Below are positions 4,644-28,234 of a stretch of DNA of 34,409 nt, piece after piece. The notes beneath the pieces were generated by a model that saw nothing but the letters and a program-made list of their open reading frames with translations, was not told the DNA's origin and ran no database searches. A program made the position numbers and the translations under genes. The stretch is taken from assembly GCF_027322205.1 (NCBI RefSeq), contig NZ_DAHVHY010000018.1, forward strand, positions 1-34,409, written 5' to 3'. Source of the stretch: Acidithiobacillus sp. (GTDB lineage Bacteria > Pseudomonadota > Gammaproteobacteria > Acidithiobacillales > Acidithiobacillaceae). Every line of letters begins with the position of its first letter. Position 1 is the first letter of the stretch.

Positions 4644-4660
4644 CGCACTATTTTGGTGCA
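4644..4660 (+). promoter_or_regulatory. NtrC-type binding site upstream of exbB
   Basis: The sequence is CGCACTATTTTGGTGCA. It has the GCAC-N7-GTGC core of NtrC boxes and resembles the enterobacterial glnA enhancer sites. It is centred near 4652, about 129 bases before the start predicted from the sigma-54 promoter. A second box starting TGCACCA at 4674-4690 is good only in its left half, but its centre is 30 bases away, the usual spacing for paired NtrC dimers. Confidence 0.72.
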
Positions 4661-4673
4661 AAGTTGCATTGCC

Positions 4674-4690
4674 TGCACCAAAGAAGGGAC
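4674..4690 (+). promoter_or_regulatory. Partial second NtrC-type box
   Basis: The left half TGCACCA matches the NtrC half-site exactly, but the right half (AAGGGAC) is poor. Its centre is 30 bases from the strong box at 4644-4660, which is why it is listed. The TTTGGTGCA of the strong box and the TGCACCAAA here also form a 9-base inverted repeat (4652-4660 and 4674-4682). Confidence 0.4.
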
Positions 4691-4754
4691 TGTCGGCTTG
4701 TTAGGTTTTTGTAACTGTATGATTTTAATAATAGGTGCTGCCAACAAGTACCAA

Positions 4755-4770
4755 TGGCATGCTTTCTGCT
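4755..4770 (+). promoter_or_regulatory. Sigma-54 promoter for the exbB-hpxW operon
   Basis: The sequence TGGCATGCTTTCTGCT has the -24 GG and -12 GC at exact sigma-54 spacing and matches the TGGCAYR-N4-TTGCW consensus at nearly all fixed positions. Transcription would start near 4781, giving a leader of about 37 bases before exbB. No competing sigma-70 promoter was seen closer to the gene. Confidence 0.75.
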
Positions 4771-4817
4771 CAGTCTATGCTTGGTAATTTTGTTAATCAC
4801 CTTGTGCTGGAGTTTAT

Positions 4818-5522
4818 ATGATCTCGTTCGGTTATCTTGTGCATCTTGCCAATTATTCGGATGGCGTTCTTTACCTGTTGATGATTCTTTTCGTGGTTGA
4901 GCTCGCTGTGATTTTCGATCGGGGTTGGTATCTGCGTAACGCCATCAGCAAAGGTAAGAAGATCCTTTGGGGAATATCCGCTCGCGGCAAGTTGCTGCGC
5001 CCTGATCTGGAAGATCTGGTGGTTTTGTCCAAGGGGCTCCCCGAAGAGTCTCTGCTGGGCGTGGCGCTCCGGCATTTCAATTTGATTCATCATTACGGTA
5101 GCGCTCGTGGCGAAGCCTTCGCGAACCGTTTAGATGAAGCTATTTTCCTGACGACGCCCAGGCTGGATAAGCGCCTTTGGATTTTGGACACCATCGTCAC
5201 TCTGGCGCCCCTGCTGGGCCTGTTCGGAACTATTCTGGGTATGTTCCACGCCTTCTCCATCCTCGCGGTGCCTGGTCATAATCCCAATTCTGTTACTGGC
5301 GGTGTTGCGGATGCGCTGATTGCCACCGCGTCTGGACTCTTTATTGCCATGATCGGCTTACTGAGTTTTAACGCATTCAACAACGCTATCGAGAAAACCA
5401 TTTTCCAGCTCGAGTCGTTGAAAGTGGTACTTATGAACCGTTTGGATGGGGCGCCCGTGGTGTTAGAGGAGACGGCAGTCAATGTTCCATCGTCAGCCAC
5501 GGCGTCCAAAGTGACCGCATGA
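4818..5522 (+). CDS. exbB: ExbB/TolQ/MotA-family proton channel protein
   Basis: This 234-residue inner-membrane protein has three hydrophobic segments: about 15-33, 122-147 and 165-187. The second contains the conserved LAPLLGLFGTILGM block and the third the DALIATASGLFIAMIGLLSFN block that line the ExbB pore. It would use the proton-motive force, with ExbD, to energise TonB. The start has a GGAG five bases upstream. Placement directly downstream of a sigma-54/NtrC control region, and upstream of nucleobase transport and degradation genes, suggests this copy is dedicated to nitrogen-compound uptake rather than iron. TolQ is excluded by the downstream exbD-tonB pair rather than tolR-tolA. Confidence 0.88.
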   Translation: MISFGYLVHLANYSDGVLYLLMILFVVELAVIFDRGWYLRNAISKGKKILWGISARGKLLRPDLEDLVVLSKGLPEESLLGVALRHFNLIHHYGSARGEAFANRLDEAIFLTTPRLDKRLWILDTIVTLAPLLGLFGTILGMFHAFSILAVPGHNPNSVTGGVADALIATASGLFIAMIGLLSFNAFNNAIEKTIFQLESLKVVLMNRLDGAPVVLEETAVNVPSSATASKVTA

Positions 5523-5541
5523 TGTTTTGGAATGTTTTTTC

Positions 5542-5558
5542 ACTTTGCCAGGCAAAGT
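5542..5558 (+). repeat. Inverted repeat between exbB and exbD
   Basis: Eight-base arms ACTTTGCC and GGCAAAGT surround a single central A. They end directly at the exbD ribosome-binding site (AAGGAG at 5559-5564). In mRNA the inner bases would open to give a short hairpin beside the Shine-Dalgarno. It may tune ExbB:ExbD stoichiometry, which is an inference. Confidence 0.55.
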
Positions 5559-5571
5559 AAGGAGTAAAGTA

Positions 5572-5970
5572 ATGTTGCCCCAACGCCGACCCCGCAAAAA
5601 AGGGCGTGTCGAAATTATTCCGATGATTGACGTTATGCTGTTCCTGCTAATTTTTTTCATCATGATGACTTTGCAGATGATTACGGATAAGGGATTAAAG
5701 CTGGACTTGCCCACTTCCAGCGAAACCAAAGTGCTGCCGCATCCGCATTTTGTGCTCAATATCGTGAAAGATGGCGGTGTTGTGGTGAAGGGCAAAAAAA
5801 TGAGTCTGGATCAACTGCAGAGTTTCCTCGCGGGCGATGGCGATGCTAAACACACACAGGTGACGATCGCGGCCGATAAAATGGTTCCTTTCAAGGATTT
5901 TGTGCAGGTGATGGATGCTTGTCAAAAAGCGGGTGTAACCAGCATTGGTATTGCGGCGAAGCCCGCATGA
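5572..5970 (+). CDS. exbD: ExbD/TolR-family biopolymer transport protein
   Basis: The 132-residue protein has a short basic cytoplasmic N-terminus (RRPRKKGRVEIIP), one membrane segment (about 18-38) and a periplasmic domain. The membrane-embedded proton-carrying aspartate is visible in IPMIDVMLFLLIFFIMMT (D20). The ATG at 5572 has an AAGGAG ribosome-binding site. An upstream in-frame TTG-type start would add unrelated residues and was not used. It completes the ExbB-ExbD motor and is separated from exbB by a small inverted repeat. The gap of 90 bases to tonB shows no gene. Confidence 0.9.
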   Translation: MLPQRRPRKKGRVEIIPMIDVMLFLLIFFIMMTLQMITDKGLKLDLPTSSETKVLPHPHFVLNIVKDGGVVVKGKKMSLDQLQSFLAGDGDAKHTQVTIAADKMVPFKDFVQVMDACQKAGVTSIGIAAKPA

Positions 5971-6060
5971 GTATTCGTGTCTGTGCTCTGGGCGACGTGA
6001 GCGGATACCAGACGTACAGTTGGCGAGTGAGACAGTATTCGAGAATGGGAATAGATTTAT

Positions 6061-6807
6061 ATGATTACCACGATGCCTAGGATTGCGAATAATGCACTCA
6101 TGCCGGAGCCGAAGGAACGCCATTTCAAGTATGCCGTGGGCGGTGCCGTGGCGGTTGAGGTTCTGCTCGTGCTCGGCTTGATCTGGTATGGACACAGCAC
6201 GCCTCCGGTAAAGGCCGTTAAGCCCAAGGAACACGTCATTGCGGTACAAATGGTGACTTTGCCGCAACCACCGCCGAAGGTGGTACCCAAGCCTTTACCG
6301 AAACCGATTCCTCCCAAACCGGTGGTGCATCATGTGACGCCGCCACCGCCCCGTCCGCACCCGAAGGTGGTGATTCCGCCGAAACCGGCGCCAACGCCAC
6401 CAGCGCCGCCGGTAAAGACGGTTACCCCACCGAAGCCAGTGCCAATGCCGACCCCTAAGCCGGTGGTGACTCCGCCGCCTGCGCCACCGCCGATGTCGGC
6501 TCAGCAGACGGCGTCATTGATGGGGCGTTATGTTGGTATGGTACGGCCGATAATTCAGCAGAGCCTGCGTGTTCCCGCTGAGTTGCGGGCGATGGGGCTG
6601 AGTGGCAAAGCGACTGTGGAGTTTGAAATTTCTCCCTCGGGTCAATTGCTTTGGGCGAAAATCATCAAGCCGAGTCCTTTAGGCGCGGTAAATCGTGCGG
6701 CACTTGCCGCGATTAAAAAGGGTGGCTTCCCACCATTTTTGAAAAAGATGCCTAAACAGAATACGGTTTTTCAAATTGATGTCAAAGTAGGCGCCGGATC
6801 AAATTAG
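6061..6807 (+). CDS. tonB: TonB energy transducer
   Basis: The 248-residue protein has a cytoplasmic N-terminus, one signal-anchor segment (about 24-43), a long proline/lysine/valine-rich spacer (about 65-146, with repeated PKP and PPP runs) and a C-terminal TonB domain (about 150-248). The last includes MGLSGKATVEFEISPSGQLL and AALAAIKKGGFPPF, which are typical of the fold. It would carry energy from ExbBD across the periplasm to an outer-membrane receptor, and the TonB-dependent receptor at 23467-25806 is the obvious partner. The spacer is long enough to span the periplasm. The gene sits upstream of a nucleobase permease with only a 60-base gap, consistent with one transcript. Confidence 0.92.
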   Translation: MITTMPRIANNALMPEPKERHFKYAVGGAVAVEVLLVLGLIWYGHSTPPVKAVKPKEHVIAVQMVTLPQPPPKVVPKPLPKPIPPKPVVHHVTPPPPRPHPKVVIPPKPAPTPPAPPVKTVTPPKPVPMPTPKPVVTPPPAPPPMSAQQTASLMGRYVGMVRPIIQQSLRVPAELRAMGLSGKATVEFEISPSGQLLWAKIIKPSPLGAVNRAALAAIKKGGFPPFLKKMPKQNTVFQIDVKVGAGSN

Positions 6808-6867
6808 TGCTGTTACGAGTCAGTAGTGCTTTGATCCAATGGGTTGTAACACTGAGGGAGAAAGGTG

Positions 6868-8271
6868 ATGAGTGACAGGCATTCAATAAGCGCCACGACA
6901 GCAGCGGAGCGTACCAGCTCGGCGCCTCATGTCGCTCTGATCTGGCTCGCCGCGACCATGACCGCTTCCAGCCTGCCGGTCGGGGTCCTCATCGCCCAGT
7001 TGTTTCCCTTGGCGCCGTTTCTGTGGGTTGTGCTGCTGGCGTCCACACTATTTGCCGCCGTGGGCATCCTCAGTATCCCGGGATTCGTGTATGGGATCCC
7101 GACCATGGCGGTTTCCGCACGCGTTTTTGGAAAGCCGGTCAATAAGCTGATTTCTCTAAGTAACTGGTTGTCTCAGTTGGGTTGGCAGGCCGTGGTGTTG
7201 GTACTTGTGGTGTATATCCTCCGCAGTGTTTTTGACAGCTATGGATTGGTACCTGCGAATAGCAGTATTTATTATGCCTTGGTACTGGCTATTCTGGGCA
7301 ATTTTGTAGTGCCCATTATCGGATATAAGGCCATCGTGACGGCGCAGACGGTGGGGGCGCTATTTCTCGCCCTGTTTGCGATAGCCATACTGGTATATCT
7401 GCATGGTGGACAGGCGCTTCCGATGCTGTCTGCCGTAGGCCACTTTGACGGAATTCAAACCCTGGGTGGAATTTCATTGGCGCTCATGGGCGGCGCGTTC
7501 TCATGGACGATGTTTGCTTCGGATTATTCGCGGTATGTGCGGCGTGACACGAGCCTGACTAAAATGGCGCTATGGCCCAGCCTCGGCGGATTTGCGGGTG
7601 GTAGCCTCATCCTCGCATTAGCCATCACGCTGTATGTGCATGGCGGTATCCAGGTAGGACCTGCTGGACTCACCATCATGGCGACTGGACTGGGTACTTC
7701 GGCACTGTATTTAGGTTTTTGCACGTTTGCGATATTAGGTTTGTTGGCATCTAATTTTTTGAACTCCTACAGTTCTGCTTTCAGCCTGGCGGTGGTGGTA
7801 GGCAAGGATCTGGATCGCAAGAAGGTTACGGTTCTGGATGCGCTGCTGGCAACACTGGTCGGTATCTACATGCTTTTTGTGGCACCATCATTCTGGGATT
7901 CTTTTCAGACTTTTTTGGATTTGCTGATTATCGTCGCGGCGCCGTGGACCGGTGTGATGATCATGTATGTTTTGTGGGATGTGCTCCCGGAAGCGCGCGG
8001 CGGATTGAGCAGGCTGCCACATGGGCGTGCTAATGTCTGGGTGCTCGCTATAGGGGTCGCGGTTACCGTGTTGTTCTCGAATAATCCGCTTTGGGAGGGG
8101 TATGGAGCGCATTTGTTGCATGGTATAGACATATCGCCATTGGCGGGTGTGGCTACGACAATCGTTGTTTCGGCATCGTACCGGATTTTGTTTGGTCACA
8201 ATGCCGCCACTGATGAGCAAGGACGGATGAAAGCTTTATCCAAAGCGGCTGTTAGTAAGGTTCCAGATTAA
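6868..8271 (+). CDS. NCS1-family cytosine/purine permease
   Basis: This is a 467-residue inner-membrane transporter with about 12 hydrophobic segments. It shows NCS1 features such as the N-terminal helix LIWLAATMTASSLPVGVL, the SWTMFASDYSRYVRR block in the middle (the DYSRY motif of CodB/PurP-type permeases) and the SNFLNSYSSAFSLAV stretch. Members take up cytosine, purines or related bases by cation symport. Its position before guanine and adenine deaminase genes suggests purine bases, which is an inference. The start was placed at ATG 6868; the adjacent GTG at 6865 would add one residue. It belongs to a different NCS1 branch from the Mhp1-like transporter at 33287. Confidence 0.85.
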   Translation: MSDRHSISATTAAERTSSAPHVALIWLAATMTASSLPVGVLIAQLFPLAPFLWVVLLASTLFAAVGILSIPGFVYGIPTMAVSARVFGKPVNKLISLSNWLSQLGWQAVVLVLVVYILRSVFDSYGLVPANSSIYYALVLAILGNFVVPIIGYKAIVTAQTVGALFLALFAIAILVYLHGGQALPMLSAVGHFDGIQTLGGISLALMGGAFSWTMFASDYSRYVRRDTSLTKMALWPSLGGFAGGSLILALAITLYVHGGIQVGPAGLTIMATGLGTSALYLGFCTFAILGLLASNFLNSYSSAFSLAVVVGKDLDRKKVTVLDALLATLVGIYMLFVAPSFWDSFQTFLDLLIIVAAPWTGVMIMYVLWDVLPEARGGLSRLPHGRANVWVLAIGVAVTVLFSNNPLWEGYGAHLLHGIDISPLAGVATTIVVSASYRILFGHNAATDEQGRMKALSKAAVSKVPD

Positions 8272-8291
8272 AGCGTCAGTGGATATCGATC

Positions 8292-9518
8292 GTGAAAAAA
8301 ATATTTAGGGCGCCGATGCTCAATCCGATAGATGCGCATACCTGGGAGTTTTATCAGGATGGCGCACTATGTGTCGATCAGGGCATCATTGTGGGCGTGG
8401 GTAATTTCAGCACGGTTATTGAGCAGGCGGGGTCTGATCCGGAAGTCGAAAATTTGGACGGTGTGATCGTTCCGGGCTTCGTGGATGTGCATTTACATTG
8501 GGTGCAGCACCGGGTCAGGGGACGTTTTTCTGGCGAACTCCTGACTTGGCTGCAAGAACATATCTGGCCGGAAGAGGCGCGCTACGTGGATACCGATTTG
8601 GCCCAGGCTGCGGCGGTTCAATGCTATGCCGATTTGTTGCGCGCGGGGACCGTGATGGGCATGAGCTATTCCAGCACTCATGCCGCGGCGACTCAGATAG
8701 CTTTGGCATCAATGCGCGGTGATTGGGTGGTTGGTAATGTGCTCATGGCGGTTCACGCGCCCCACACCTTGACCGATTACAGCCTGCACAATCCTGACGC
8801 GCTGCGTGCATTCATGGGCCAGACGGATAAGGCGCATTATGCCCTGACCCCCCGTTTTGCGCCTAACCTGACCGCAGAGTCGCTGGCGGCATTGGGACAG
8901 ATTGCTGCCGAGAGTCGGTGTTTGATTCAGACGCATCTCGCGGAATCGGTCGCGGAGCTGCAATGGGTTAAAGAGCTGTTTCCCGACGCGGCGCACTATA
9001 CCGAGGTGTATGACCGCGCGGGTCTGCTGACGCCCCGGACGATATTGGGCCACTGTATTGAAATGCGTGACGAGGAATGGTGCTGCCTTCGGGAGCGCGG
9101 CTCCTGGGTCGCGCATTGCCCTACGAGTAATGAGGCGCTGGGCAACCGACGCATGCCCTTAGAGCAAGTCCGTGCTTACGATATTCCCTTTGCGTTGGCG
9201 AGTGATATAGGCGGTGGTCCCAGCCATAGCATGCTGCATGTCATGCAGCGATTTCTGGGAACACATCGGGAAGCGGACGTTGCTGTTGCGCCTCAGGAGG
9301 CCTTGTATCGTTCTACCAAGGCGGGTGCCGAATGTATGGGTAGAGGTGCCGTCGGTGGTGATTTGACGGTGGGAAAACGGGCTGATTTTGTGCTTTTGCC
9401 GCAGAAGCCCGCAGCGTCTTCTGTGGAAGCCTGGTTTGAGGAATGTTTAAGCGGTAAGCCGGCTGATCTGGAACAGCGTCCGCTGGGAACCTGGCTCAGT
9501 GGTGAGCGGGCGGCCTAA
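8292..9518 (+). CDS. guaD: Guanine deaminase
   Basis: This 408-residue amidohydrolase-superfamily enzyme converts guanine to xanthine and ammonia. The zinc site is readable: PGFVDVHLHWVQ (H67, H69), QTHLAES (H215 and the catalytic E218), LGHCIEM (H254) and ASDIGGG (D305). The substrate-site block LTPRFAPNLT is characteristic of guanine deaminases rather than atrazine or cytosine deaminases. The start is a GTG with only a weak ribosome-binding site, but homology extends to it. It follows the NCS1 permease by 20 bases and feeds xanthine to the dehydrogenase encoded downstream. A closely related 8-oxoguanine or other purine specificity cannot be excluded. Confidence 0.88.
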   Translation: MKKIFRAPMLNPIDAHTWEFYQDGALCVDQGIIVGVGNFSTVIEQAGSDPEVENLDGVIVPGFVDVHLHWVQHRVRGRFSGELLTWLQEHIWPEEARYVDTDLAQAAAVQCYADLLRAGTVMGMSYSSTHAAATQIALASMRGDWVVGNVLMAVHAPHTLTDYSLHNPDALRAFMGQTDKAHYALTPRFAPNLTAESLAALGQIAAESRCLIQTHLAESVAELQWVKELFPDAAHYTEVYDRAGLLTPRTILGHCIEMRDEEWCCLRERGSWVAHCPTSNEALGNRRMPLEQVRAYDIPFALASDIGGGPSHSMLHVMQRFLGTHREADVAVAPQEALYRSTKAGAECMGRGAVGGDLTVGKRADFVLLPQKPAASSVEAWFEECLSGKPADLEQRPLGTWLSGERAA

Positions 9519-9566
9519 GCGATGTACATGCATAGTCTTATAAAGACATACGGAGCAACACCTTTT

Positions 9567-10610
9567 ATGGAAAGTATGACAAAGATTAAAAGGGGGCTGG
9601 CTGACTTTGTGGAGGGTCTTCCCAAGGTAGAGCTGCATTTGCATATTGAGGGCACTTTGGAGCCCGAATTACTTATCGCGCTGGCCCGGCGTAACGGCGT
9701 GGATATTCCCTATAAGACGATAGCGGCGGCACGGACGGCATATCAATTTGAGGATCTGCAAAGTTTTCTGAAGGTCTATTATCTGGGGGCGTCCGTATTG
9801 CGGGAAGAGCAAGACTTTTATGAGCTGACTCTAGCCTATATGGCCCGCTGTAAAGCCCAGCAGATTCGGCATACGGAACTGTTTTTTGATCCACAGACGC
9901 ATCTTGCCAATGGCGTGCCATTGGCGGCGGTGATGGGTGGCATCAACGCCGCCTTGCGCGACGCCGAGCGCGACTGGCATATATCCAGCGCGCTGATTCT
10001 TTGCTTTGAGCGGGATCGCGATCCGGAACCCTCGGTGGTGCTCTTGGAGCGTGCTTGTGCTTTGGGGGGCATTGCCGGCATTGGTCTCGACTCCGCTGAG
10101 TTGGGCAATCCGCCAGAAAAGTTTCAGGAGGTGTTTAAGGTGGCCAAGTCCATGGGCCTGCATCGGGTTGCCCATGCCGGGGAGGAGGGGCCACCCGCCT
10201 ATATCTGGCAAGCGCTGGATGTGCTGGATGTCGAGCGCATAGATCATGGGGTGCGCTGCCTGGAGGATCCGGCACTGGTGCGGCGTCTGGTGGATGACCG
10301 AATCCCTCTCACGGTCTGCCCATTCTCCAATGTCGCGCTCAAAGTGTTTAGCCAGTTATCTGAACATAATCTGGGCCGCTTGTTGAAAGCAGGGTTGTCG
10401 GCGACGATTAATTCGGATGACCCGGCGTACTTCGGTGGATACCTGAGCGAAAATATCATCGAGACGCTTTCCAGTCTGGATTTAACAGCGCAAGACGCCT
10501 TACTTCTTGAACGTAACGCCGTTGAAGCGGCTTTTTGTACGGACCAACGAAAGCAGTCCCTGCTCAGGGATCTGGATCAGTACGGCGCATCACATCAGAA
10601 CCTATTATGA
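9567..10610 (+). CDS. Adenine deaminase (adenosine deaminase-like fold)
   Basis: The enzyme belongs to the ADA superfamily. From the ATG at 9567 the zinc and catalytic residues are KVELHLHIEGTLEP (H24, H26), VAHAGEEGPP (H203, catalytic E206), RIDHGVRC (H227) and NSDDPAYFGGY (D284). The block GLDSAELGNPPEKF is that of the adenine deaminase subfamily (Aah1-like), where true adenosine deaminases have a GxDLAGDE-type block. The likely reaction is therefore adenine to hypoxanthine plus ammonia. Start choice: ATG 9567 has GGAG at 9551. An in-frame ATG at 9522, just after the guaD stop, lacks a clear ribosome-binding site. The next gene is overlapped or directly abutted. Confidence 0.85.
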   Translation: MESMTKIKRGLADFVEGLPKVELHLHIEGTLEPELLIALARRNGVDIPYKTIAAARTAYQFEDLQSFLKVYYLGASVLREEQDFYELTLAYMARCKAQQIRHTELFFDPQTHLANGVPLAAVMGGINAALRDAERDWHISSALILCFERDRDPEPSVVLLERACALGGIAGIGLDSAELGNPPEKFQEVFKVAKSMGLHRVAHAGEEGPPAYIWQALDVLDVERIDHGVRCLEDPALVRRLVDDRIPLTVCPFSNVALKVFSQLSEHNLGRLLKAGLSATINSDDPAYFGGYLSENIIETLSSLDLTAQDALLLERNAVEAAFCTDQRKQSLLRDLDQYGASHQNLL

Positions 10611-10633
10611 AAAACTCACCAGGGAGAGTGTTC

Positions 10634-11635
10634 GTGGAGAAAAATACGCTTTGGAAGCATATGATGTTATGTGGTGCAGTCGGCTGTTCATTGATGGCGC
10701 CACTGGCCGACGCACAGATTATACCGGCGGCGGCAAAAATGAGCCCGAAAGTGATCGTGTTGACGGCATTCCCGCCCGAGTGGCAAGCATGGACGGTGCA
10801 AAAATCTTTTCATCATAAGATCTTGCATGTACCAGGTCTCATCAAGCCTCTGATCTGCGACAGCAAAGGTGTCTGTGTTACGGAAACCGGTGAAGGGGAA
10901 ATCAATGCCGCAGTCACCGTCACCAGTCTGGTGAAAGACGCGGCTCTGGATGTCAAGAAAACCATTTTTATCCGCAGTGGCATCGCCGGTGGTGTGGACG
11001 TAAAAGATTCTGCACTGGGCAGTGTGTATATCAATAACTGGGTGATCTCCTGGGCTTTTGGACATCATTACCTGAGTGATCAGAAGCAGTTGGCGTGGTC
11101 GCCTCCGGGGTGTGCAGACTACGCCGCTCCCGGCCATTGTGGTGAATACACCCATAATCTATATGAGAACTTGGCTTATAAAGTCAATCCGGCACTCTTG
11201 ACCATGGCGGTGGAGGCTTCAGCCAACGTACAATTGGAAAACTCATCCGAAGCCAAAAAGTTGGATAAAATCTTCGCTATCTCCGTGGCACCGAAAGTGA
11301 TGGTAGGTGCTACTGTTACTGGAAATGATTTTTGGATCGGTAAAGAGAATCAGGCTATTGCCGAGCAAATTGTGCATCTATATAGCCATGGAGAGGCAAA
11401 ATATACCAATACCGCCATGGAAGATCTCGGAGACATCACCGCGCTCTCTCGTTTTGGCCTGGCAGATCATTATTTGTCCATACGCGGGATCTCTGACGTG
11501 GATGTTCCGCCCCCTGGTAAGACGGAAGCGGAAATCTGGAGAACCGGCGATTTGTATGCTGGCGCTCTCGCCGAGCGTAATGCGGTCATTGTCACCAGGG
11601 CCATTATCGCCCGCCTGTTAAAGGATTCTGTGTGA
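10634..11635 (+). CDS. Secreted purine nucleoside permease (NUP)-family protein
   Basis: The N-terminus reads as a Sec signal peptide: MEKNTLWKH, then hydrophobic MMLCGAVGCSLMAPL, then ADA before QIIP. The mature domain has NUP-family features: VLTAFPPEW, TGEGEINAAVTVTSL, a TIFIRSGIAGGVD glycine-rich turn, TGNDFW and YTNTAMED. The family is related to nucleoside phosphorylase folds, although named after a fungal nucleoside permease. A periplasmic protein that binds or cleaves purine nucleosides would supply free bases to the NCS1 permease, which is an inference. GTG 10634 was chosen because AGGGAG lies seven bases upstream. An ATG at 10607 overlaps the previous stop but has no ribosome-binding site and would add nine residues before the signal peptide. 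Confidence 0.78.
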   Translation: MEKNTLWKHMMLCGAVGCSLMAPLADAQIIPAAAKMSPKVIVLTAFPPEWQAWTVQKSFHHKILHVPGLIKPLICDSKGVCVTETGEGEINAAVTVTSLVKDAALDVKKTIFIRSGIAGGVDVKDSALGSVYINNWVISWAFGHHYLSDQKQLAWSPPGCADYAAPGHCGEYTHNLYENLAYKVNPALLTMAVEASANVQLENSSEAKKLDKIFAISVAPKVMVGATVTGNDFWIGKENQAIAEQIVHLYSHGEAKYTNTAMEDLGDITALSRFGLADHYLSIRGISDVDVPPPGKTEAEIWRTGDLYAGALAERNAVIVTRAIIARLLKDSV

Positions 11636-19522: not shown

Positions 19523-19535
19523 GAGGAAAAATCCC

Positions 19536-19922: not shown

Positions 19923-19929
19923 CTGCACT

Positions 19930-22154: not shown

Positions 22155-22175
22155 GCGCGTCGGTGGCGCGCTTTA
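22154..22175 (+). terminator. Weak possible terminator after hpxW
   Basis: AGCGCG (22154-22159) and CGCGCT (22167-22172) form a six-base stem with a seven-base loop, followed only by TTA. The hairpin is GC-rich but the T tract is minimal, so termination may be partial. The rest of the gap to lysR (22176-22240) shows nothing recognisable. Confidence 0.3.
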
Positions 22176-22240
22176 CCCATCAAATTCACGGCGATCTGGA
22201 CGTGCTGGTGACCGCGACGAGCAGCGAGGGCAGAAAAAAT

Positions 22241-23191
22241 TCAATAATCCGGACTCGACACACCTCCGCGATCATTCTCACTTTCGGTAGACAGGCTGAT
22301 ATTGTTCAACTCCTCCGCAATGTAATTGGAAAATCGGGCAGCGGAGACTGAAATGCCGCGGTTTTTCAGCTGGGCACAGACCAAGGGTACCGGGCGTATA
22401 TCTATCGCCGAGATCGGCCGATAGATAATGTTTTCATTTATGCGGTCTTTGGGGGTGCCTGTTGATATCACAAAACCGACATTTTGTGTGCTGTAAAGAA
22501 GGCCGCGCATTACCTCGTAAGAGTTGGTTTCTGCCGCAATCCGGGTTTCCGCGCGGCGGCTGTGCAACACGGACTCCAACATTTCGCGGGAGGTCAGCCC
22601 GGGCGCTGGCAATACCAATGGGTACTGGATGCAGTCACTCAAGCGTACGGTGCTCTGTCTGGCGAGCGGGTGCGCAATATCCATAGCCGCCATCAAAGGT
22701 TGCTCGGAAATCGCCAGGTCGATTACGTCCGGATGTTTGGGGGGCGCAACGATAACCACCAGGTCTGCCTCAAAGGCCAACAGTGCGCGAACAGCATCGC
22801 TGTGTTTCGCCACAGTTACCGAAAATGAAACGCCCGGATACTGTTCCCTAAATGTCTTAATAATTCGGGGAATGAAGTCCGTGGCCAGTGCCGGACTGAC
22901 GGCCAGCGCAACATGTCCCCGGCGTAAACCATTGAGGCTGTCTATTTCCGAGCGTAAACGCTGCATATCAGAAAGATGGCGACGCACGTAACCCAAAAAA
23001 ACTTCTCCCGCTGCAGAGAGGCGCATTCCCCGTGGATGTCGTTCGAAAATGCCGGTACCCAATTCTTCTTCCAAGTCCTGAACGCGGCGGTCCAGTGCCG
23101 ATGCTGTAATGTGCAGCTTTTCAGCCGCACGACGTACCGATCCTTCTTTGACAATGGTATCGATGTAGGTAAAGAGGCGCAGATGTTTCAT
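22241..23191 (-). CDS. LysR-family transcriptional regulator
   Basis: The 316-residue protein has an N-terminal winged HTH (about 1-60: MKHLRLFTYIDTIVKEGSVR, then AAEKLHITASALDRRVQDLEE). A substrate-binding domain follows, starting near residue 90 (GHVALAVSPALATDFIPRII). The HTH has DRRVQDLE where SRQIxxLE is usual. The ATG at 23191 was preferred because LysR proteins start three to five residues before the LRxF motif; an ATG 36 bases upstream (23227) would add 12 residues. It is transcribed divergently from the TonB-dependent receptor and convergently with hpxW. A dyad at 23257-23277 overlaps its own -10, so autoregulation and control of the receptor are likely. The effector, perhaps a purine or pyrimidine catabolite, is unknown. 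Confidence 0.88.
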   Translation of the reverse strand: MKHLRLFTYIDTIVKEGSVRRAAEKLHITASALDRRVQDLEEELGTGIFERHPRGMRLSAAGEVFLGYVRRHLSDMQRLRSEIDSLNGLRRGHVALAVSPALATDFIPRIIKTFREQYPGVSFSVTVAKHSDAVRALLAFEADLVVIVAPPKHPDVIDLAISEQPLMAAMDIAHPLARQSTVRLSDCIQYPLVLPAPGLTSREMLESVLHSRRAETRIAAETNSYEVMRGLLYSTQNVGFVISTGTPKDRINENIIYRPISAIDIRPVPLVCAQLKNRGISVSAARFSNYIAEELNNISLSTESENDRGGVSSPDY

Positions 23192-23239
23192 GGCAAAGCC
23201 CTGAGCGTTGCGTTTTATGTGACGCATTGGCAAAAAAAT

Positions 23240-23256
23240 AGCACTTTAATCGTGCG
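23240..23256. promoter_or_regulatory. Possible NtrC-type core upstream of lysR
   Basis: AGCACTTTAATCGTGCG contains the GCAC-N7-GTGC symmetric core of NtrC boxes, but the inner CA and TG positions do not fit. It lies about 50 bases upstream of lysR and over 180 bases from the receptor transcription start. It could also be a LysR half-site element. Confidence 0.3.
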
Positions 23257-23277
23257 TTGTAAATGGCCATTATACAA
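23257..23277. promoter_or_regulatory. LysR-type dyad operator overlapping the lysR -10
   Basis: TTGTA (23257-23261) and TACAA (23273-23277) flank eleven bases that include ATGGCCAT. On the minus strand 23274-23269 reads TATAAT, a perfect -10 hexamer pointing at lysR. The overlap of dyad and -10 fits the usual negative autoregulation of LysR regulators. Confidence 0.5.
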
Positions 23278-23325
23278 CAACAGAGGCAGGCAATGTTCTG
23301 TCAGCAAGCTGGGATCGGCGCTGGT

Positions 23326-23342
23326 TGCTCCATTTTGGGGCG
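23326..23342 (+). promoter_or_regulatory. NtrC-type box 1 upstream of the receptor gene
   Basis: TGCTCCATTTTGGGGCG matches the TGCACCA-N3-TGGTGCA consensus in 6 of 7 left and 5 of 7 right positions. Its centre lies about 106 bases before the predicted sigma-54 start and 30 bases from the next box. Confidence 0.5.
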
Positions 23343-23355
23343 AATAATGCCTCCC

Positions 23356-23372
23356 TGCACCATGATGGAGCG
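23356..23372 (+). promoter_or_regulatory. NtrC-type box 2 upstream of the receptor gene
   Basis: TGCACCATGATGGAGCG matches the NtrC consensus in 7 of 7 left and 5 of 7 right positions. It is centred about 76 bases before the predicted start, 30 bases (three helical turns) from box 1. Confidence 0.6.
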
Positions 23373-23413
23373 ACAAAAGGCGCGGTCTCGCTGTTTGGGC
23401 AAACAAGCAGGTA

Positions 23414-23429
23414 TGGCACGTATGCTGCT
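23414..23429 (+). promoter_or_regulatory. Sigma-54 promoter of the TonB-dependent receptor
   Basis: TGGCACGTATGCTGCT fits the -24 element TGGCACG completely and places GC of the -12 element at the exact spacing. Transcription would start near 23440, leaving a leader of about 27 bases with CAGGAG before the ATG at 23467. Confidence 0.78.
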
Positions 23430-23466
23430 TGTTATTGATGTGTTGGTATAACTACAGGAGCCGATA

Positions 23467-25806
23467 ATGAACAAAGCCAATAAACGCCTTTTGAGACAAA
23501 GCCTGTTGTTAATGGCGACAGGATTTCTGGGTAGCTCGCTGCAGCCGGTGGACGCGGCTACGCCTACCACGGCGACCCCGCATCCGGCAAAGAAAGTCTA
23601 CAAGATTAAGTCGGTTTCTAAGAATTTGCTGAGAATCGTCGAGAAAGCGGCGCTTACCCAGGTCAAACCCGTCTATGGTGCTGAAACCGCACTCATCCCC
23701 CAAAAGTTTCTGGAGGGTCAGGAGTCTACGCAAAATGCCTCTACCATTCTGAGTTTTGTACCTGGGGTCAATGCTACCAGCACCAATCCCATCGGGGTTA
23801 AGACGCACATTTCGGTGCGTGGCTTCTCCCAAACGCAGGTGGGCTATACCTTTGATAACTTGCCCATTGCTGATCTGTTCAACGGTGGCTTGTCCGGCGG
23901 AAATAATAATTATGCAGACTTGACGAATCTCATCCCGGTCACCCTGGGTGAGACCTCAGGTGTCCGGGTGACTTACGGTACACCGGCTCCGGATATCAAC
24001 GCCATCGGGGCTATCGGCGGAAATATTGATTATCTTCCGAAGATTCCGTCGGCAAAACGTTACGAGTCGGTATTTGCTGGTTTTGGTTCTTTTAACACGC
24101 GCAGCTATGGTGCTGAGGTCAACACTGGCGTAAGTCCTGGCTATGGTAATCTCCTGCTGAGATTCTCTTCGCGGCAGACCGCAGGCTACCTGGACCACAG
24201 TCCTGATCGCGAGTACTCCTACTATGCGGCCTATGATTTGCCGCAAATTTCGCCGACCTCAAAATGGTCAGTCATATTTTTGCTGAATAAAAACCAAGGT
24301 GCCACCGCCGCGCGAATGCCGACCGCGCTGTTGCAGCAGTATGGACCTTATTATCAGTGGCCACTGTCTTTCACCTACGCGAATAGCACGGCGGAACACA
24401 TGATGGCTATTGTGCAGAATAAAACGCTTATATCTTCTCACGCTGTTTTTGGTGTCAAGGGATTTTATGCCTACACCAACTCCAATCGTTTGGAATATGT
24501 GAATCCCAGTGCCAATTCGCCTTACAACAGTTTTGTCACTTTTTATCTGAACCCGGCACAAACCGTCTGCCAGTATTCGGGGAATGATTTTGCCGGTAAC
24601 AATTCTGCGGCATGTCAGGCGCAAACTATTAACGGGGATAATTATCACAGTTATAGCTATACCACAAATACTTTCGGGTTTAATCCTTCTGTCGAGTGGC
24701 TCAGTCATTATGTGGACTTGAAAGCTGGAGGGCTGGGCGCGGTCTCTCTGTATCATTCTCGGGACTATGTTTACGGAAGCCCGAATGTCCCCGAAGTGGC
24801 CGGTTACAATAACCTCTGGAATGAGCACGCATGGCGTCTGTACGGTAAGCTCTATGCGCAAGCCAAAATCAAGCTGACGCGCTCTTTGGCGATTACCCCT
24901 GGTCTGAAATATGAGACGGTAAGCACGCATATCAATGATGTACCGGGGTACTACTACACCGTAGGTGCCAGCAGTGGCCGCTCTTACAGTGAGGTGAGTC
25001 CATACGCCGGCATCCAGTATAAGCCGATAAAAGCGGTAACGCTGTATGCCAACTATGCGGTCGGGTACAAGTATCCGAACATCACTGCATTTTATGCGGC
25101 TGATAGTAATGCCACCTCGACATCGCCATCGACGCCGGTGACGATAAAACCGGAGCAAGTCAACACGTACCAGTTTGGGGCGGCTTACAAACATGATGGC
25201 CTTGATGCGAGCATTTCTTTCTATCGCTCAGACTTCGCACATACGTTCAGTTCCTACTATGATACAACAACAGGGCTGACTTATGAGTACAATATCGGTT
25301 CTTCATCGTATCAGGGCATTAACATTGCCACTGCTTACGCGCTAGATAATTATATATCGCTTTATGGGAACTACTCGCTTCAGGCGGCGCATTACACCTC
25401 AAACTCGTCAAGCGCCTATGGAGTTGCCACCAGCATTGGAGAGCCGCGGGCCAATACCCCGACTTACCTTGCGGGTATGGGGATAGAAGGGCATTACATG
25501 GGTACGCGCGCCCGGTTGTACGGCAATCTGGTCGGCCCGCAATATATTGAGGCCAGTACGGGTGCACCAACTTCCATCAGTATGCCCGCCTATGCGACCA
25601 TGAACTTCAATCTTGCGCATACCTTTCGGATACATCAGTACGGATTCAAAAATGTGACGCTCAGCCTGAGTGGAGTGAATCTCCTGAACTCCGAAGCCTC
25701 GGTGCTGGAAAAGCAGTTCCCTTATATCAATCAGCCCGGCAACTATTTAGAAGCGGAGCCGATGATGCCGCGCTCCTTCTTCGGAACCGTAAAAATGGTT
25801 TTTTAG
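23467..25806 (+). CDS. TonB-dependent outer-membrane receptor
   Basis: The 779-residue protein has a Sec signal peptide (about 1-30, ending PVDAA) and a plug domain (about 65-200) with ILSFVPGVNATSTNP, ISVRGFSQTQVGYTFDNLP and IGAIGGNIDY. A long Tyr/Ser/Asn-rich 22-strand barrel follows, ending with the aromatic FFGTVKMVF. A clear TonB box is not obvious: the region after the signal peptide reads KKVYKIKSVS. It would import a large or scarce nutrient using the TonB-ExbBD encoded at 4818-6807. Its sigma-54 promoter with NtrC-type boxes and its position among nucleobase degradation genes suggest nucleosides, nucleobases or derived compounds rather than siderophores. This is an inference; the substrate cannot be read from sequence. 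Base composition is visibly lower in G+C than the flanking genes. Confidence 0.9.
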   Translation: MNKANKRLLRQSLLLMATGFLGSSLQPVDAATPTTATPHPAKKVYKIKSVSKNLLRIVEKAALTQVKPVYGAETALIPQKFLEGQESTQNASTILSFVPGVNATSTNPIGVKTHISVRGFSQTQVGYTFDNLPIADLFNGGLSGGNNNYADLTNLIPVTLGETSGVRVTYGTPAPDINAIGAIGGNIDYLPKIPSAKRYESVFAGFGSFNTRSYGAEVNTGVSPGYGNLLLRFSSRQTAGYLDHSPDREYSYYAAYDLPQISPTSKWSVIFLLNKNQGATAARMPTALLQQYGPYYQWPLSFTYANSTAEHMMAIVQNKTLISSHAVFGVKGFYAYTNSNRLEYVNPSANSPYNSFVTFYLNPAQTVCQYSGNDFAGNNSAACQAQTINGDNYHSYSYTTNTFGFNPSVEWLSHYVDLKAGGLGAVSLYHSRDYVYGSPNVPEVAGYNNLWNEHAWRLYGKLYAQAKIKLTRSLAITPGLKYETVSTHINDVPGYYYTVGASSGRSYSEVSPYAGIQYKPIKAVTLYANYAVGYKYPNITAFYAADSNATSTSPSTPVTIKPEQVNTYQFGAAYKHDGLDASISFYRSDFAHTFSSYYDTTTGLTYEYNIGSSSYQGINIATAYALDNYISLYGNYSLQAAHYTSNSSSAYGVATSIGEPRANTPTYLAGMGIEGHYMGTRARLYGNLVGPQYIEASTGAPTSISMPAYATMNFNLAHTFRIHQYGFKNVTLSLSGVNLLNSEASVLEKQFPYINQPGNYLEAEPMMPRSFFGTVKMVF

Positions 25807-25884: not shown

Positions 25885-26442
25885 TCAGAAGCTGGGGGGT
25901 GAGTTGGCGCTGACTATTTCACAGATTTCATGCCCCGCATTGACGAAGCGATGCGGGAGCTGACTATCGAAGTAGTATCCATCACCGGGAGAAAGGCTTT
26001 GCACCTTGTCACCAATGGTCAGTTGAATCGTGCCCCGGACGATGATGCCACCCTCTTCACCGTTATGGCGCAGCATGGCTTCACCGGTATCGGCGCCCGG
26101 CTCATAATATTCGTGCATGATCTGCATGGCCCGGCCTTTGGATCGGCGCCCTAAAAGTTTCATGATGATTTTGGGATCCATGGCGATATCGGGCAGTTCG
26201 TCGGCACGGAAAAAAACTTCATCGGAAGGTACCAAGTCCAAGGTAAAGAACTCGGCAATGGACATGGGAATGCCATCAAGAATTTTTTTAAGCGAGCTGA
26301 TAGAAGGGCTGACCCGATTTTGTTCAATCAGGGATATGGCACCGTTAGTAACGCCGGCGCGCCGGGATAACTCGCGCTGGGTCAGGCCGTAAATTTTGCG
26401 CACCAACAGAAGACGGTGGCCAATGTCATCGCTATTGCTCAT
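25885..26442 (-). CDS. XRE-cupin transcriptional regulator
   Basis: From the ATG at 26442 the protein has 185 residues. It has an N-terminal XRE helix-turn-helix (about 5-60: LLLVRKIYGLTQRELSRRAG, VTNGAISLIEQNRVSPSISS) and a C-terminal cupin domain (about 105-180: MLRHNGEEGGIIVRG, LSPGDGYYFDSQLPHRFVN). The PuuR-like combination usually senses small metabolites, often amines or amino acids. An ATG at 26475 would add MWKPYPFGFLP, but a TATAAT lies directly over that codon, so the downstream start is preferred. The perfect tandem repeat just upstream (26477-26528) is the likely operator. The aminotransferase gene behind it on the same strand may be the regulated target. Neither start has a good ribosome-binding site. 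Confidence 0.85.
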   Translation of the reverse strand: MSNSDDIGHRLLLVRKIYGLTQRELSRRAGVTNGAISLIEQNRVSPSISSLKKILDGIPMSIAEFFTLDLVPSDEVFFRADELPDIAMDPKIIMKLLGRRSKGRAMQIMHEYYEPGADTGEAMLRHNGEEGGIIVRGTIQLTIGDKVQSLSPGDGYYFDSQLPHRFVNAGHEICEIVSANSPPSF

Positions 26443-26476
26443 GGGTAAGAATCCAAATGGATAGGGTTTCCACATT

Positions 26477-26528: not shown

Positions 26529-26558
26529 AAAGGCGGTGAGTTCCGGGGTGTGTTGTCC

Positions 26559-27884
26559 TTAGCGTAAATTGCCGATGACGTTGCGGAGTATGTCGGCGAT
26601 TTCGTCGATTGCGTCCCTTTGAATAATCAGGGGAGGAGATAAGGCAATGGTGTCACCTGTCGTGCGAATCAGCAGACCCTTGTCGAAAGCGCTTTGCAAG
26701 GCGGCCATGCCACGTGCGCCAAAGGCATCGGGAAGGCTTTCCAGATCGATGGCGGCCATCATGCCGATGTTGCGGATATCGATAACTTTGGGTAATTCAT
26801 GCAGGCTGTGAATGGCTTTTTCAAAGTAGGGTGCCAGTTCTGCGCCGCGGGTCAGAAGCCCCTCTTGTTCGTAAATGTCCAGGGCGGCCAGAGCCGCCGC
26901 ACAGGCCAGGGGGTGACCCGAATACGTATAGCCGTGAAAGAGTTCGATGCCACGATCGCTGCCCTGCATAAAGGCCTGATAAATGGCGTCACTGACGAAG
27001 ACGGCCCCCATGGGAACGGCGGCATTGGTCAGCCCCTTGGCGGTGGTCAGGAGATCGGGAGTGACGCTGAAATAATCCGTGGCGAAAGGGGTCCCCAAAC
27101 GGCCGAAGCCAGTAATGACTTCGTCAAAAATCAGCAAGAGACCATGTGTATCACAGGCTTCACGCAGTTGCCGCAGATAATCCCGGTGAGGAACGATGAC
27201 TCCAGCAGACCCCGCAACCGGTTCAACAATGACGGCCGCGATGCGCTCGGCACCATGGCGCCGGACAATTTCGTCCAGAGCAAGGGCGGGGTCTTCTCCC
27301 CACTCTGGCAGCCCCTGGTCGAAGCGATTGCGGCTTTGATCCAGGGTGTGGGGTAAAAAATCCGCTTCCAGCAGCGGTCCGAACGCTTCCTTGTTGCGCG
27401 GTAGGCCACCGACACTGAGCCCGCCGAAACCGACACCGTGATAAGCCTTCTCGCGGCCAATAAAGAGCGTGCGCTCCGGTTCGCCCCGGTTGAAGTGGTA
27501 GGCGCGCGCGATTTTTAAGGCCGTATCCGCAGATTCGGATCCGGAGTTGGTGAAAAAAACATGATTCAGGGCAGAGGGCATCCACTGGATCAGGCGCTTC
27601 GCCAGAGTGAAGACCAGGGGATGGCCTATCTGAAAAGTGGGCGCGAAATCCATTTCCGCGGCTTGTTGGGCAATGGCCGCGCTGATTTCCGGGCGACAGT
27701 GTCCGGCATTGACACACCAGAGGCCGGCGGTGCCGTCCAAAATGGGACGTTCATCTGGTGTCCAGTAATACATGCCTCGCGCCCGGCTCAGGAGCCGGGG
27801 TTGTTGGAGAAAAGCACGATTTGCCGTGAAAGGCAGCCAGCAGGCGGGGTTAGCAAGTGGTGCGGTTTTAGTCAGTTCGTCCAT
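26559..27884 (-). CDS. Class III aminotransferase, beta-alanine:pyruvate type
   Basis: The 441-residue PLP enzyme matches omega-amino acid:pyruvate transaminases: GMYYWTPDERPILDGTAGLW, CVNAGHCRPEI, FAPTFQIGHPL, FTNSGSESADTALK (115-118 GSES), LIFDEVITGFGRLG (D254) and TTAKGLTNAAVPMGA (PLP lysine K283). It would convert beta-alanine, or 3-aminoisobutyrate, released by the neighbouring ureidopropionase to malonate (or methylmalonate) semialdehyde. It is transcribed divergently from the pyrimidine operon, from its own sigma-54-like promoter. No semialdehyde dehydrogenase is in the window. The ATG at 27884 has a weak ribosome-binding site. Confidence 0.87.
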   Translation of the reverse strand: MDELTKTAPLANPACWLPFTANRAFLQQPRLLSRARGMYYWTPDERPILDGTAGLWCVNAGHCRPEISAAIAQQAAEMDFAPTFQIGHPLVFTLAKRLIQWMPSALNHVFFTNSGSESADTALKIARAYHFNRGEPERTLFIGREKAYHGVGFGGLSVGGLPRNKEAFGPLLEADFLPHTLDQSRNRFDQGLPEWGEDPALALDEIVRRHGAERIAAVIVEPVAGSAGVIVPHRDYLRQLREACDTHGLLLIFDEVITGFGRLGTPFATDYFSVTPDLLTTAKGLTNAAVPMGAVFVSDAIYQAFMQGSDRGIELFHGYTYSGHPLACAAALAALDIYEQEGLLTRGAELAPYFEKAIHSLHELPKVIDIRNIGMMAAIDLESLPDAFGARGMAALQSAFDKGLLIRTTGDTIALSPPLIIQRDAIDEIADILRNVIGNLR

Positions 27885-27930
27885 GGTCTATCCAAGTGAG
27901 GTGGAGCGGCTTAGGGTGTTGACGATATTA

Positions 27931-27946
27931 GGCAAAATTCATGCCT
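27931..27946 (-). promoter_or_regulatory. Sigma-54 promoter of the aminotransferase gene
   Basis: Read on the minus strand the sequence is AGGCATGAATTTTGCC: GG and GC at sigma-54 spacing, TTGC complete, with only the first T of TGGCA replaced by A. Transcription would start near 27920, 36 bases before the ATG. Confidence 0.65.
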
Positions 27947-28019
27947 TAATAGAGGACGACGCAAGTATCTATTGCAGTACTGCACATTGGGCGACCATAC
28001 ATTGTTGATTATAATATTC

Positions 28020-28036
28020 CGCACCATGTTGGTGCA
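28020..28036. promoter_or_regulatory. NtrC-type box, near-perfect
   Basis: CGCACCATGTTGGTGCA matches TGCACCA-N3-TGGTGCA at all but the first position. It is the best NtrC box in the window and lies between the two divergent sigma-54 promoters, about 109 bases from the minus start and 218 from the plus start. Confidence 0.78.
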
Positions 28037-28050
28037 ACAAGGGGTGCGGC

Positions 28051-28067
28051 TGCTTTTTGTTGGTGCA
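28051..28067. promoter_or_regulatory. Second NtrC-type box
   Basis: TGCTTTTTGTTGGTGCA has a perfect right half (TGGTGCA) and a weak left half (TGC only). Its centre is 31 bases from the strong box at 28020-28036, the pairing distance also seen at the other two control regions. Confidence 0.5.
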
Positions 28068-28218
28068 TTACGGCACTTGGTTGATGAATAAAATGTTCAC
28101 GTTATGCCTATGGGCTGTTTGCCAGGTGAGTATCTGCCAAGGTATTAATGTAATATTAACCATTGAAAACAGTGCAATATACATGTTTTATTGATTGCCT
28201 CTGTAGCTTTGCCAACCT

Positions 28219-28234
28219 TGGCATACGCATTGCA
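28219..28234 (+). promoter_or_regulatory. Sigma-54 promoter of the pyrimidine degradation operon
   Basis: TGGCATACGCATTGCA is a complete match to TGGCAYR-N4-TTGCW. Transcription would begin near 28246, giving a leader of about 59 bases before the ureidopropionase ATG at 28305. Confidence 0.82.

What the first reader, a model, noticed from the sequence alone, without database searches (positions are those of the whole stretch)
4644..28234. Shared sigma-54/NtrC promoter architecture at three separate loci
Three control regions (before exbB, before the TonB-dependent receptor, and between the aminotransferase and ureidopropionase genes) each combine a -24/-12 sigma-54 promoter with two NtrC-type boxes whose centres are 30-31 bases apart. 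That makes four sigma-54 promoters in about 34 kb. This is direct sequence evidence that purine breakdown, pyrimidine breakdown and TonB-dependent uptake form one nitrogen-limitation regulon. The known part is the NtrC consensus TGCACCA-N3-TGGTGCA and the TGGCAYR-N4-TTGCW promoter. The inference is that NtrC is the activator.
Basis: partly seen in the sequence, partly recalled or inferred. Interest (0 to 1): 0.85.

Follow-up and report, generated by a model that had tools for sequence, protein, structure and literature searches.

The report
Nitrogen-starvation switches for nucleobase uptake
In an acid-loving mineral-leaching bacterium, the DNA switches that normally answer to nitrogen starvation sit in front of genes for importing and breaking down DNA and RNA building blocks, so some outer-membrane gates labelled as iron importers may really be nitrogen importers.

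Summary
The window is Acidithiobacillus. Three control regions carry sigma-54 -24/-12 elements 50-191 bp downstream of NtrC-type palindromes; the third serves two divergent promoters, making four. A matrix built from 11 sites outside the window finds box plus promoter in 11/11 exbB, 9/10 receptor, 7/7 pyd and 7/7 apt upstream regions (window included), against 6/2000 random stretches. The genome has one clear NtrC, whose presumed recognition helix equals E. coli's, unlike ten other activators, and RpoN. Similar boxes precede ntrB, amtB, P-II and glnA genes. Corrections: the second exbB box is a half-site; the aptA promoter is off consensus; purine genes join only by read-through of a 17-kb operon; nothing is direct evidence of binding. 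Beyond the finding, a second receptor group has the signature in 7/8; one receptor behind nucleoside genes has it here, but 12/13 other receptors, including that one's 82%-identical relative, do not. By gene order two systems match A. ferrooxidans tdrK and tdrF/FecA1, published as Fe(III) receptors. I read them as nitrogen-starvation uptake systems for nucleobases and probably peptides; substrates are untested.

The parts
4644..4660 (.). NtrC-type palindrome 1 upstream of exbB (CGCACTATTTTGGTGCA)
   Evidence: score 22.2 with a matrix built from sites outside the window; a box at this place in 11 of 11 exbB upstream regions, the window included
4674..4690 (.). NtrC half-site, centre 30 bp from box 1 (only the TGCACCA half fits)
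   Evidence: Score 6.2; TGCAC or CGCAC half at 30 bp in 11 of 11
4755..4770 (+). sigma-54 -24/-12 promoter of the exbB operon
   Evidence: TGGCATGCTTTCTGCT, strict match; at most one mismatch in 9 of 11 genomes, two in L057 and L060
4818..22154 (+). presumed single operon: exbB, exbD, tonB, NCS1 permease, guanine deaminase, adenosine deaminase, NUP family, XDH-type subunits, ureidoglycolate-lyase-like, AtzD, XdhC, AtzG-like, AtzE, AtzH-like, MocA-like, gamma-glutamyltranspeptidase
   Evidence: gene order conserved in relatives; read-through inferred
23326..23342 (.). NtrC-type box 1 upstream of the TonB-dependent receptor
   Evidence: (score 11.1)
23356..23372 (.). NtrC-type box 2, 30 bp from box 1
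   Evidence: (score 15.5)
23414..23429 (+). sigma-54 promoter of the TonB-dependent receptor
   Evidence: TGGCACGTATGCTGCT, strict; box plus promoter in 9 of 10 upstream regions, and in G003 and G007 with a two-mismatch promoter
23467..25806 (+). TonB-dependent receptor (TBDR1)
   Evidence: Pfam Plug and TonB_dep_Rec_b-barrel; present in exactly the 11 of 17 genus genomes that have this exbB
27931..27946 (-). sigma-54 promoter of aptA (near-consensus, AGGCATGAATTTTGCC, two mismatches)
   Evidence: found in 7 of 7, with one mismatch in the 5 other than the window and L084
26559..27884 (-). omega-aminotransferase AptA (class III), followed by the PuuR-like regulator 25885-26475
28020..28036 (.). 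NtrC-type palindrome shared by the divergent aptA and pyd promoters
   Evidence: CGCACCATGTTGGTGCA, score 20.0
28051..28067 (.). second, weaker NtrC-type site, 31 bp away
   Evidence: Score 10.4; 31-bp spacing in 6 of 7
28219..28234 (+). sigma-54 promoter of the pyrimidine-breakdown operon
   Evidence: TGGCATACGCATTGCA, zero mismatches; 7 of 7 without mismatch
28305..33285 (+). reductive pyrimidine-breakdown operon: carbon-nitrogen hydrolase (ureidopropionase-like), PydB-like, PydA-like, dihydropyrimidinase
   Evidence: start codon

Best explanation
These are NtrC-activated sigma-54 promoters of a nitrogen-scavenging regulon in Acidithiobacillus. Under nitrogen limitation NtrB phosphorylates NtrC. 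NtrC~P binds the paired sites 50-190 bp upstream, oligomerises across about three helical turns (30-31 bp), loops to sigma-54 RNA polymerase and drives open-complex formation. One promoter drives the exbB-exbD-tonB-permease-purine-breakdown operon; one drives the TonB-dependent receptor; one enhancer pair between aptA and pyd drives both divergent promoters of pyrimidine breakdown. Together they would supply the TonB gate, its energy, the inner-membrane permease and the enzymes that release ammonia from nucleobases. Shown: motifs, conservation, similar boxes at classical nitrogen genes, presence of NtrC and RpoN, module co-occurrence. Inferred: NtrC binding, sigma-54 dependence, operon read-through, nitrogen response, the receptor's substrate. 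The NtrC mechanism itself is established knowledge from E. coli (recalled).
For: Box and sigma-54 elements are linked genome-wide (8 of 22 vs 0.2 expected). The matrix made from 11 sites outside the window finds box plus promoter in 11/11 exbB, 9/10 TBDR1, 7/7 pyd and 7/7 apt regions vs 6/2000 random, and scores the two palindromes before E. coli glnA 19.2 and 17.0 at 32-bp spacing. Similar boxes with sigma-54-like elements precede ntrB, a PrkA gene, an Amt-DUF444-SpoVR group, an operon with P-II and a second Amt, and an MFS gene near nitrite-reductase-type genes; glnA has boxes. NtrC 775 bits, above cut-off; GWGRNTLTRKL identical to E. coli NtrC and not found in the ten other activators compared. 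TBDR1 and this exbB occur in exactly the same 11 of 17 genomes.
Against: No binding, 5'-end or expression data. The second exbB site is a half-site. exbB promoters of L057 (G007) and L060, and TBDR1 promoters of G003 and G007, have two mismatches; L052 has no TBDR1 combination. The elements before ntrB and the first amtB have one mismatch, the latter in the GG, and glnA has no strict element. G011 has AtzD without TBDR1 or this exbB, and G013 (85% complete) lacks AtzD. Several other nitrogen promoters here use 19-22 bp spacing. The matrix sites were themselves chosen for likeness to the NtrC consensus near sigma-54-like elements. The genomes are related, so counts are not independent.
Confidence: 0.86

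Rival explanations
1. The sigma-54 promoters are real but another enhancer-binding protein (for example an NtrX-like regulator) binds the boxes and answers to another signal.
For: The genome encodes ten other proteins matching the sigma-54 activation part of the NtrC model; Acidithiobacillia are reported to carry NtrX (PMC12194929, passages).
Against: Of the eleven activators compared only the NtrC orthologue has the E. coli NtrC helix (a further HTH-only match on C62 was not compared). The palindromes before E. coli glnA score highly with the local matrix. Similar boxes precede ntrB, P-II and amtB genes.
Confidence: 0.07
2. The receptor and exbB-tonB genes serve iron (siderophore or citrate) uptake as published, and nitrogen control only reflects the metal demand of nitrogen metabolism (iron and molybdenum for xanthine dehydrogenase or nitrogenase).
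For: Published annotation of Acidithiobacillus receptors as Fe(III) transporters (PMC2621215 passages; PMC2631029 passages and sections 7-8). Best solved-structure match is a weak hit to a heme receptor (E 3.2e-05). XDH is a molybdenum and iron-sulphur enzyme.
Against: No Fur-like site above background upstream of six TBDR1 genes (10-12 of 19 matches; random stretches give 9-13; simple count against a recalled consensus). The operons hold nucleobase permeases and deaminases.
Confidence: 0.27
3. Chance similarity: sigma-54-like and palindromic words in a compositionally suitable genome.
For: The loose sigma-54 pattern is not enriched in the window, and 7 of 21 scanned boxes have no sigma-54-like element nearby.
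Against: Linkage of the two elements, conservation at fixed positions in up to 11 genomes and absence before 12 of 13 other receptors.
Confidence: 0.02

Closest known systems
E. coli glnAp2 (NtrC/sigma-54)
   Same: Two palindromic NtrC sites about three helical turns apart (32 bp in E. coli, 30-31 here), upstream of a -24/-12 element; the same presumed recognition helix in NtrC
   Different: Here three sets in one 34-kb stretch, before TonB-energisation, outer-membrane-receptor and nucleobase-breakdown genes; one pair lies between two divergent promoters
NtrC regulons reconstructed in Proteobacteria (PMC5343134, passages) and in Acidithiobacillia (PMC12194929, passages)
   Same: Predictions by the same kind of motif scan; core of glutamine synthetase, ammonium transport, P-II and ntrBC in the first
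   Different: The passages seen name no TonB or ExbB gene under NtrC; the main text of PMC12194929 has no occurrence of TonB, ExbB or purine. Figures and supplements were not seen
Bradyrhizobium sp. DOA9 RpoN study (PMC13207237, passages)
   Same: Lists a predicted RpoN site before a nickel/cobalt TonB-dependent receptor gene and lower tonB expression in an rpoN mutant, so a sigma-54 link to TonB genes is in print
   Different: Read there as siderophore or metal uptake; no NtrC boxes or nucleobase genes in the passages seen
A. ferrooxidans tdrK with exbB/exbD/tonB (AFE0763, AFE0768-0770) and tdrF with tonB/exbBD (AFE2998, AFE3002-3004) (PMC2621215); FecA1 cluster (PMC2631029)
   Different: Published as Fe(III)-siderophore or dicitrate uptake; here they carry NtrC boxes and sigma-54 elements, the latter with two mismatches at tdrK and its exbB
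Pseudomonas atzDEF cyanuric-acid operon (recalled, no call)
   Same: AtzD/AtzE-type amidohydrolases under nitrogen control with a LysR regulator
   Different: Here within a purine operon behind exbB-tonB, with AtzG- and AtzH-like genes

Membership tests
NtrC/sigma-54 promoter | -24/-12 element with conserved GG and GC | tested here: met
   Three strict matches; the fourth keeps GG and GC but has 2 mismatches
NtrC/sigma-54 promoter | NtrC palindrome some 50-200 bp upstream of the promoter | tested here: met
   Best box 103, 50, 191 and 82 bp upstream of the exbB, TBDR1, pyd and apt elements
NtrC/sigma-54 promoter | two full NtrC sites in register | tested here: inconclusive
   Met at TBDR1 (15.5 and 11.1); at exbB the second is a half-site (6.2) and at pyd a weak site (10.4)
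NtrC/sigma-54 promoter | genome encodes NtrC and RpoN | tested here: met
NtrC/sigma-54 promoter | NtrC DNA-binding helix conserved | tested here: met
   GWGRNTLTRKL identical to E. coli; 62% overall identity
NtrC regulon | binding by phosphorylated NtrC and induction by nitrogen limitation | not testable with these tools
   Needs footprinting, ChIP or RNA work
Fur/siderophore receptor system | Fur box upstream | tested here: not met
   Best match 10-12 of 19 in six TBDR1 regions, within the random range 9-13; recalled consensus, simple count; predicted Fur boxes in the figures and supplements of PMC2631029 were not seen
Fur/siderophore receptor system | transport of ferric chelates | not testable with these tools
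   No substrate assay

The most novel reading that the evidence does not exclude
Acidithiobacillus has TonB-energised outer-membrane uptake systems that carry no iron: TBDR1 (and in this genome a receptor behind a nucleoside operon) imports nucleobases or nucleosides, the TBDR2/FecA1 group probably peptides or arginine derivatives, each switched on by NtrC/sigma-54 in nitrogen starvation. Nucleobases would be a substrate class for TonB-dependent receptors that I did not meet in print, and this would explain part of the puzzling excess of 'siderophore' receptors in bacteria that live in iron-rich acid.
Probability: 0.42. Interest if true: 0.78.

Novelty: new member of a known kind. Interest (0 to 1): 0.55.

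Why it matters
NtrC control of nitrogen genes is textbook. NtrC control of dedicated TonB/ExbB/ExbD machinery and its receptor was not met in the listings of searches; most listed papers were not opened. Nearest seen: a predicted RpoN site before a metal TonB receptor in Bradyrhizobium (PMC13207237, passages) and more abundant TonB receptors in nitrogen-limited P. putida, explained there by iron and vitamin B12 (PMC6537436, passages). The finding gives a testable alternative to the iron reading of receptors such as tdrK and tdrF/FecA1 in a model bioleaching genus, whose number of iron-uptake systems is called surprisingly large in print (PMC2621215, passages). It also suggests how acidophiles could recycle nucleobases from dead cells when nitrogen is short.

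Tried and rejected
The loose sigma-54 pattern (up to 2 mismatches) proved useless alone: 24 found, 22 expected. Sigma-70-like and terminator-like scans of 4300-23500 gave 16 vs 12.5 and 20 vs 20.0 (found vs shuffles), so they neither support nor exclude internal promoters. PDB sequence search says little about the substrate: two weak hits for TBDR1, none for TBDR2. Distant TBDR1 relatives (31-34% identity) were found in 7 of 368 other genomes drawn from the class; around the 8 loci a tblastn with window and C133 proteins found GGT-like genes at two, exbB/exbD at three and a PNP-type gene at one, but no purine cluster. The one with the PNP-type gene (G663) lies beside an NtrC/sigma-54-marked P-II gene and an ammonium transporter: a lead only. 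A draw of 398 genomes across the phylum gave only the window's own genome. The idea that a third receptor group as a whole carries the signature was dropped: C133's receptor has it, its 82%-identical relative L119 does not. Rows dropped: L114 and L128 (upstream cut) and L117 (same contig as L131) from the receptor comparison; L044 (upstream cut) from TBDR1; five identical copies and five loci without a pyd hit from the pyd alignment.
Full report
What is there. The window is contig C60 of a 2.28-Mb draft genome; its TonB-dependent receptor has 77-97% identical relatives in named Acidithiobacillus records and in bins named only Proteobacteria (10 loci). On the + strand, 4818-22154 reads exbB, exbD, tonB, an NCS1-type permease, guanine deaminase, adenosine deaminase, a NUP-family protein, three xanthine-dehydrogenase-type subunits, a ureidoglycolate-lyase-like protein, an AtzD-family hydrolase, XdhC, AtzG-like, AtzE, AtzH-like, a MocA-like protein and gamma-glutamyltranspeptidase. 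Then follow a LysR gene (-), the receptor TBDR1 (+), a PuuR-like regulator and AptA-type aminotransferase (-), and the reductive pyrimidine operon (+).

The observation. With a matrix built from 11 sites outside this window (7 from contig C150, 2 from C33, 2 from C109), the boxes at 4644, 28020 and 23356 score 22.2, 20.0 and 15.5 and rank first to third in the window; 26056 (15.3) and 807 (13.7), which I do not use, come next. The partners score 11.1 (23326), 10.4 (28051) and 6.2 (4674), so the exbB partner is a half-site. The fourth promoter, for aptA on the - strand, is off consensus at two positions. The sigma-54 pattern at two mismatches is no more frequent than in shuffles; strictly it occurs 92 times in the genome against 13 for the reversed control.

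Linkage. Of 22 genome boxes with at most one mismatch, 8 lie 30-250 bp upstream of a strict sigma-54 element, 0.2 expected (binomial 1e-11; two of the 8 share one promoter). Without this contig it is 5 of 19. With elements of one mismatch allowed, 14 of the 21 boxes scanned have one and 7 have none; the box on C98 was not scanned.

Regulator. One protein passes the NtrC cut-off (775 bits, C150) and RpoN is present. The NtrC is 62% identical to E. coli NtrC and the presumed recognition helix GWGRNTLTRKL is identical; the ten other proteins that match the activation domain differ there. A further HTH-only match on C62 was not compared. Boxes with sigma-54-like elements precede ntrB (one mismatch; start codon uncertain), a circularly permuted ATP-grasp gene, a PrkA gene, an Amt-DUF444-SpoVR group (one mismatch, in the GG), an operon with P-II and a second Amt (one mismatch), and an MFS gene in a cluster with NMT1-like and nitrite-reductase-type genes. 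glnA has boxes about 170 bp upstream but no strict element. The two palindromes before E. coli glnA score 19.2 and 17.0 with the local matrix, 32 bp apart, a positive control.

Conservation. All counts include the window. exbB: 11 of 11 have the first box, a partner or half-site at exactly 30 bp and an element 102-104 bp from the box centre; 9 of the 11 elements have at most one mismatch, L057 (G007) and L060 two. TBDR1: 9 of 10 regions with enough upstream DNA; partner at 29-30 bp in 8 of those 9, not in L051; L052 has none. In some genomes both arms of a box have changed (CGCCCCATTATGGGGCG in L045). G003 and G007 have strong TBDR1 boxes (23.3, 20.8) but two-mismatch elements. apt/pyd: both promoters in 7 of 7, partner at 31 bp in 6 of 7. 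Random 303-bp stretches of fetched G000 loci reach the same score in 6 of 2000. The genomes are related, so the counts overstate independence.

One module. TBDR1 and this exbB (86% identity or more) occur in exactly the same 11 of 17 genus genomes. AtzD occurs in 10 of these 11 (absent from G013, 85% complete) and in G011, which lacks both. Gene order from exbB through atzD is kept in L143, L146 and L147, and from exbD, at the edge of the stretch, in L145. The largest listed gap between neighbouring operon genes is about 105 bp and holds the AtzG-like gene, but read-through is inferred.

Beyond the finding. A second receptor (TBDR2), on C120, lies opposite its own exbB with shared boxes and two divergent sigma-54 elements. 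Its group has the signature in 7 of 8 (6 of 8 at score 10 or more), TBDR1 in 6 of 6, other receptors in 1 of 13; random 480-bp stretches reach it in under 1%. In G007 the TBDR2 operon holds MarC, malate-dehydrogenase-like, ACT, TonB, ExbB, ExbD and GNAT genes, the set described as FecA1. In G002 and G009 the receptor lies opposite a peptide-type binding-protein gene, with AstB on its own strand. A third receptor, on C133 and cut by the contig end, follows PNP-type, phosphomutase, DeoC, cytidine deaminase and NCS1-type genes; it has a box, a half-site 31 bp away and a one-mismatch element. Its 82%-identical relative in G007 (L119) lacks the signature, so this third case rests on one genome.

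Mechanism. I read these as NtrC-activated sigma-54 promoters of a nitrogen-scavenging regulon reaching from the outer membrane to ammonia release. Binding, sigma-54 dependence, read-through and substrates are inferred. The 30-31 bp spacing is not universal here: several other nitrogen promoters use 19-22 bp.

Known work. Valdes et al. 2008 (PMC2621215, passages) list eleven tdr receptors in A. ferrooxidans for siderophore-chelated Fe(III), including tdrK (AFE0763) and tdrF (AFE2998), with exbB/exbD/tonB at AFE0768-0770 and tonB/exbB/exbD at AFE3002-3004. Osorio et al. 2008 (PMC2631029, passages and sections 7 and 8) describe FecA1 with MarC, malate dehydrogenase, ACT, TonB/ExbBD and GNAT as Fe(III)-dicitrate uptake. 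The NtrC-regulon paper on Acidithiobacillia (PMC12194929, passages) has no TonB, ExbB or purine in its main text; figures and supplements were not seen. Leyn et al. 2016 (PMC5343134, passages) name no TonB gene among NtrC targets in the passages seen. PMC2607301 and PMC10274813 have no TonB in the main text. PMC13207237 and PMC6537436 (passages) do link TonB genes to RpoN or nitrogen limitation, with a metal or vitamin reading. PMC3646685, PMC7992965 and PMC9870897 (passages) show no nucleobase-carrying TonB receptor. Other papers were seen only as listings, and only open papers are held.

Noticed in passing
window 4568-4591: A conserved element, CAAAAAAAGAACTTTATCGAATC-like, lies about 55-75 bp upstream of the exbB boxes in 10 of 11 genomes. 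It is neither an NtrC nor a sigma-54 motif; perhaps another regulator's site or the end of the upstream unit.
   Followed up: no
window 15879-19922: AtzD-family hydrolase (above the NCBIfam cyanuric-acid amidohydrolase cut-off), AtzG-like, AtzE and AtzH-like genes sit together inside the purine operon with xanthine-dehydrogenase-type genes. The ring substrate (cyanurate, barbiturate or other) is unclear.
   Followed up: partly
window 33266-34409: A second NCS1-family permease runs off the window end behind the pyrimidine operon.
   Followed up: partly
L134 (own contig C120) and L135-L139: A second NtrC/sigma-54-marked receptor group; in G007 its operon has the gene set published as FecA1 ferric-dicitrate uptake, and in G002 and G009 it lies opposite a peptide-type binding-protein gene with AstB nearby.
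   Followed up: partly
L133 (own contig C133) and L119: A third receptor follows a nucleoside-salvage operon and has an NtrC box, a half-site 31 bp away and a near-consensus sigma-54 element; its 82%-identical relative L119 in G007 has none of this upstream.
   Followed up: partly
L180 (G663, another family): A distant TBDR1 relative beside a PNP-type gene next to P-II and ammonium-transporter-like genes, with NtrC boxes and sigma-54 elements before the P-II gene and before an unidentified secreted-looking protein.
   Followed up: partly
L023-L024 (own contig C150): A nitrogen island: ntrBC, two ammonium transporters, P-II, PrkA, DUF444 and SpoVR genes, with NtrC box pairs about 20-22 bp apart rather than 30-31 at two promoters.
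   Followed up: partly
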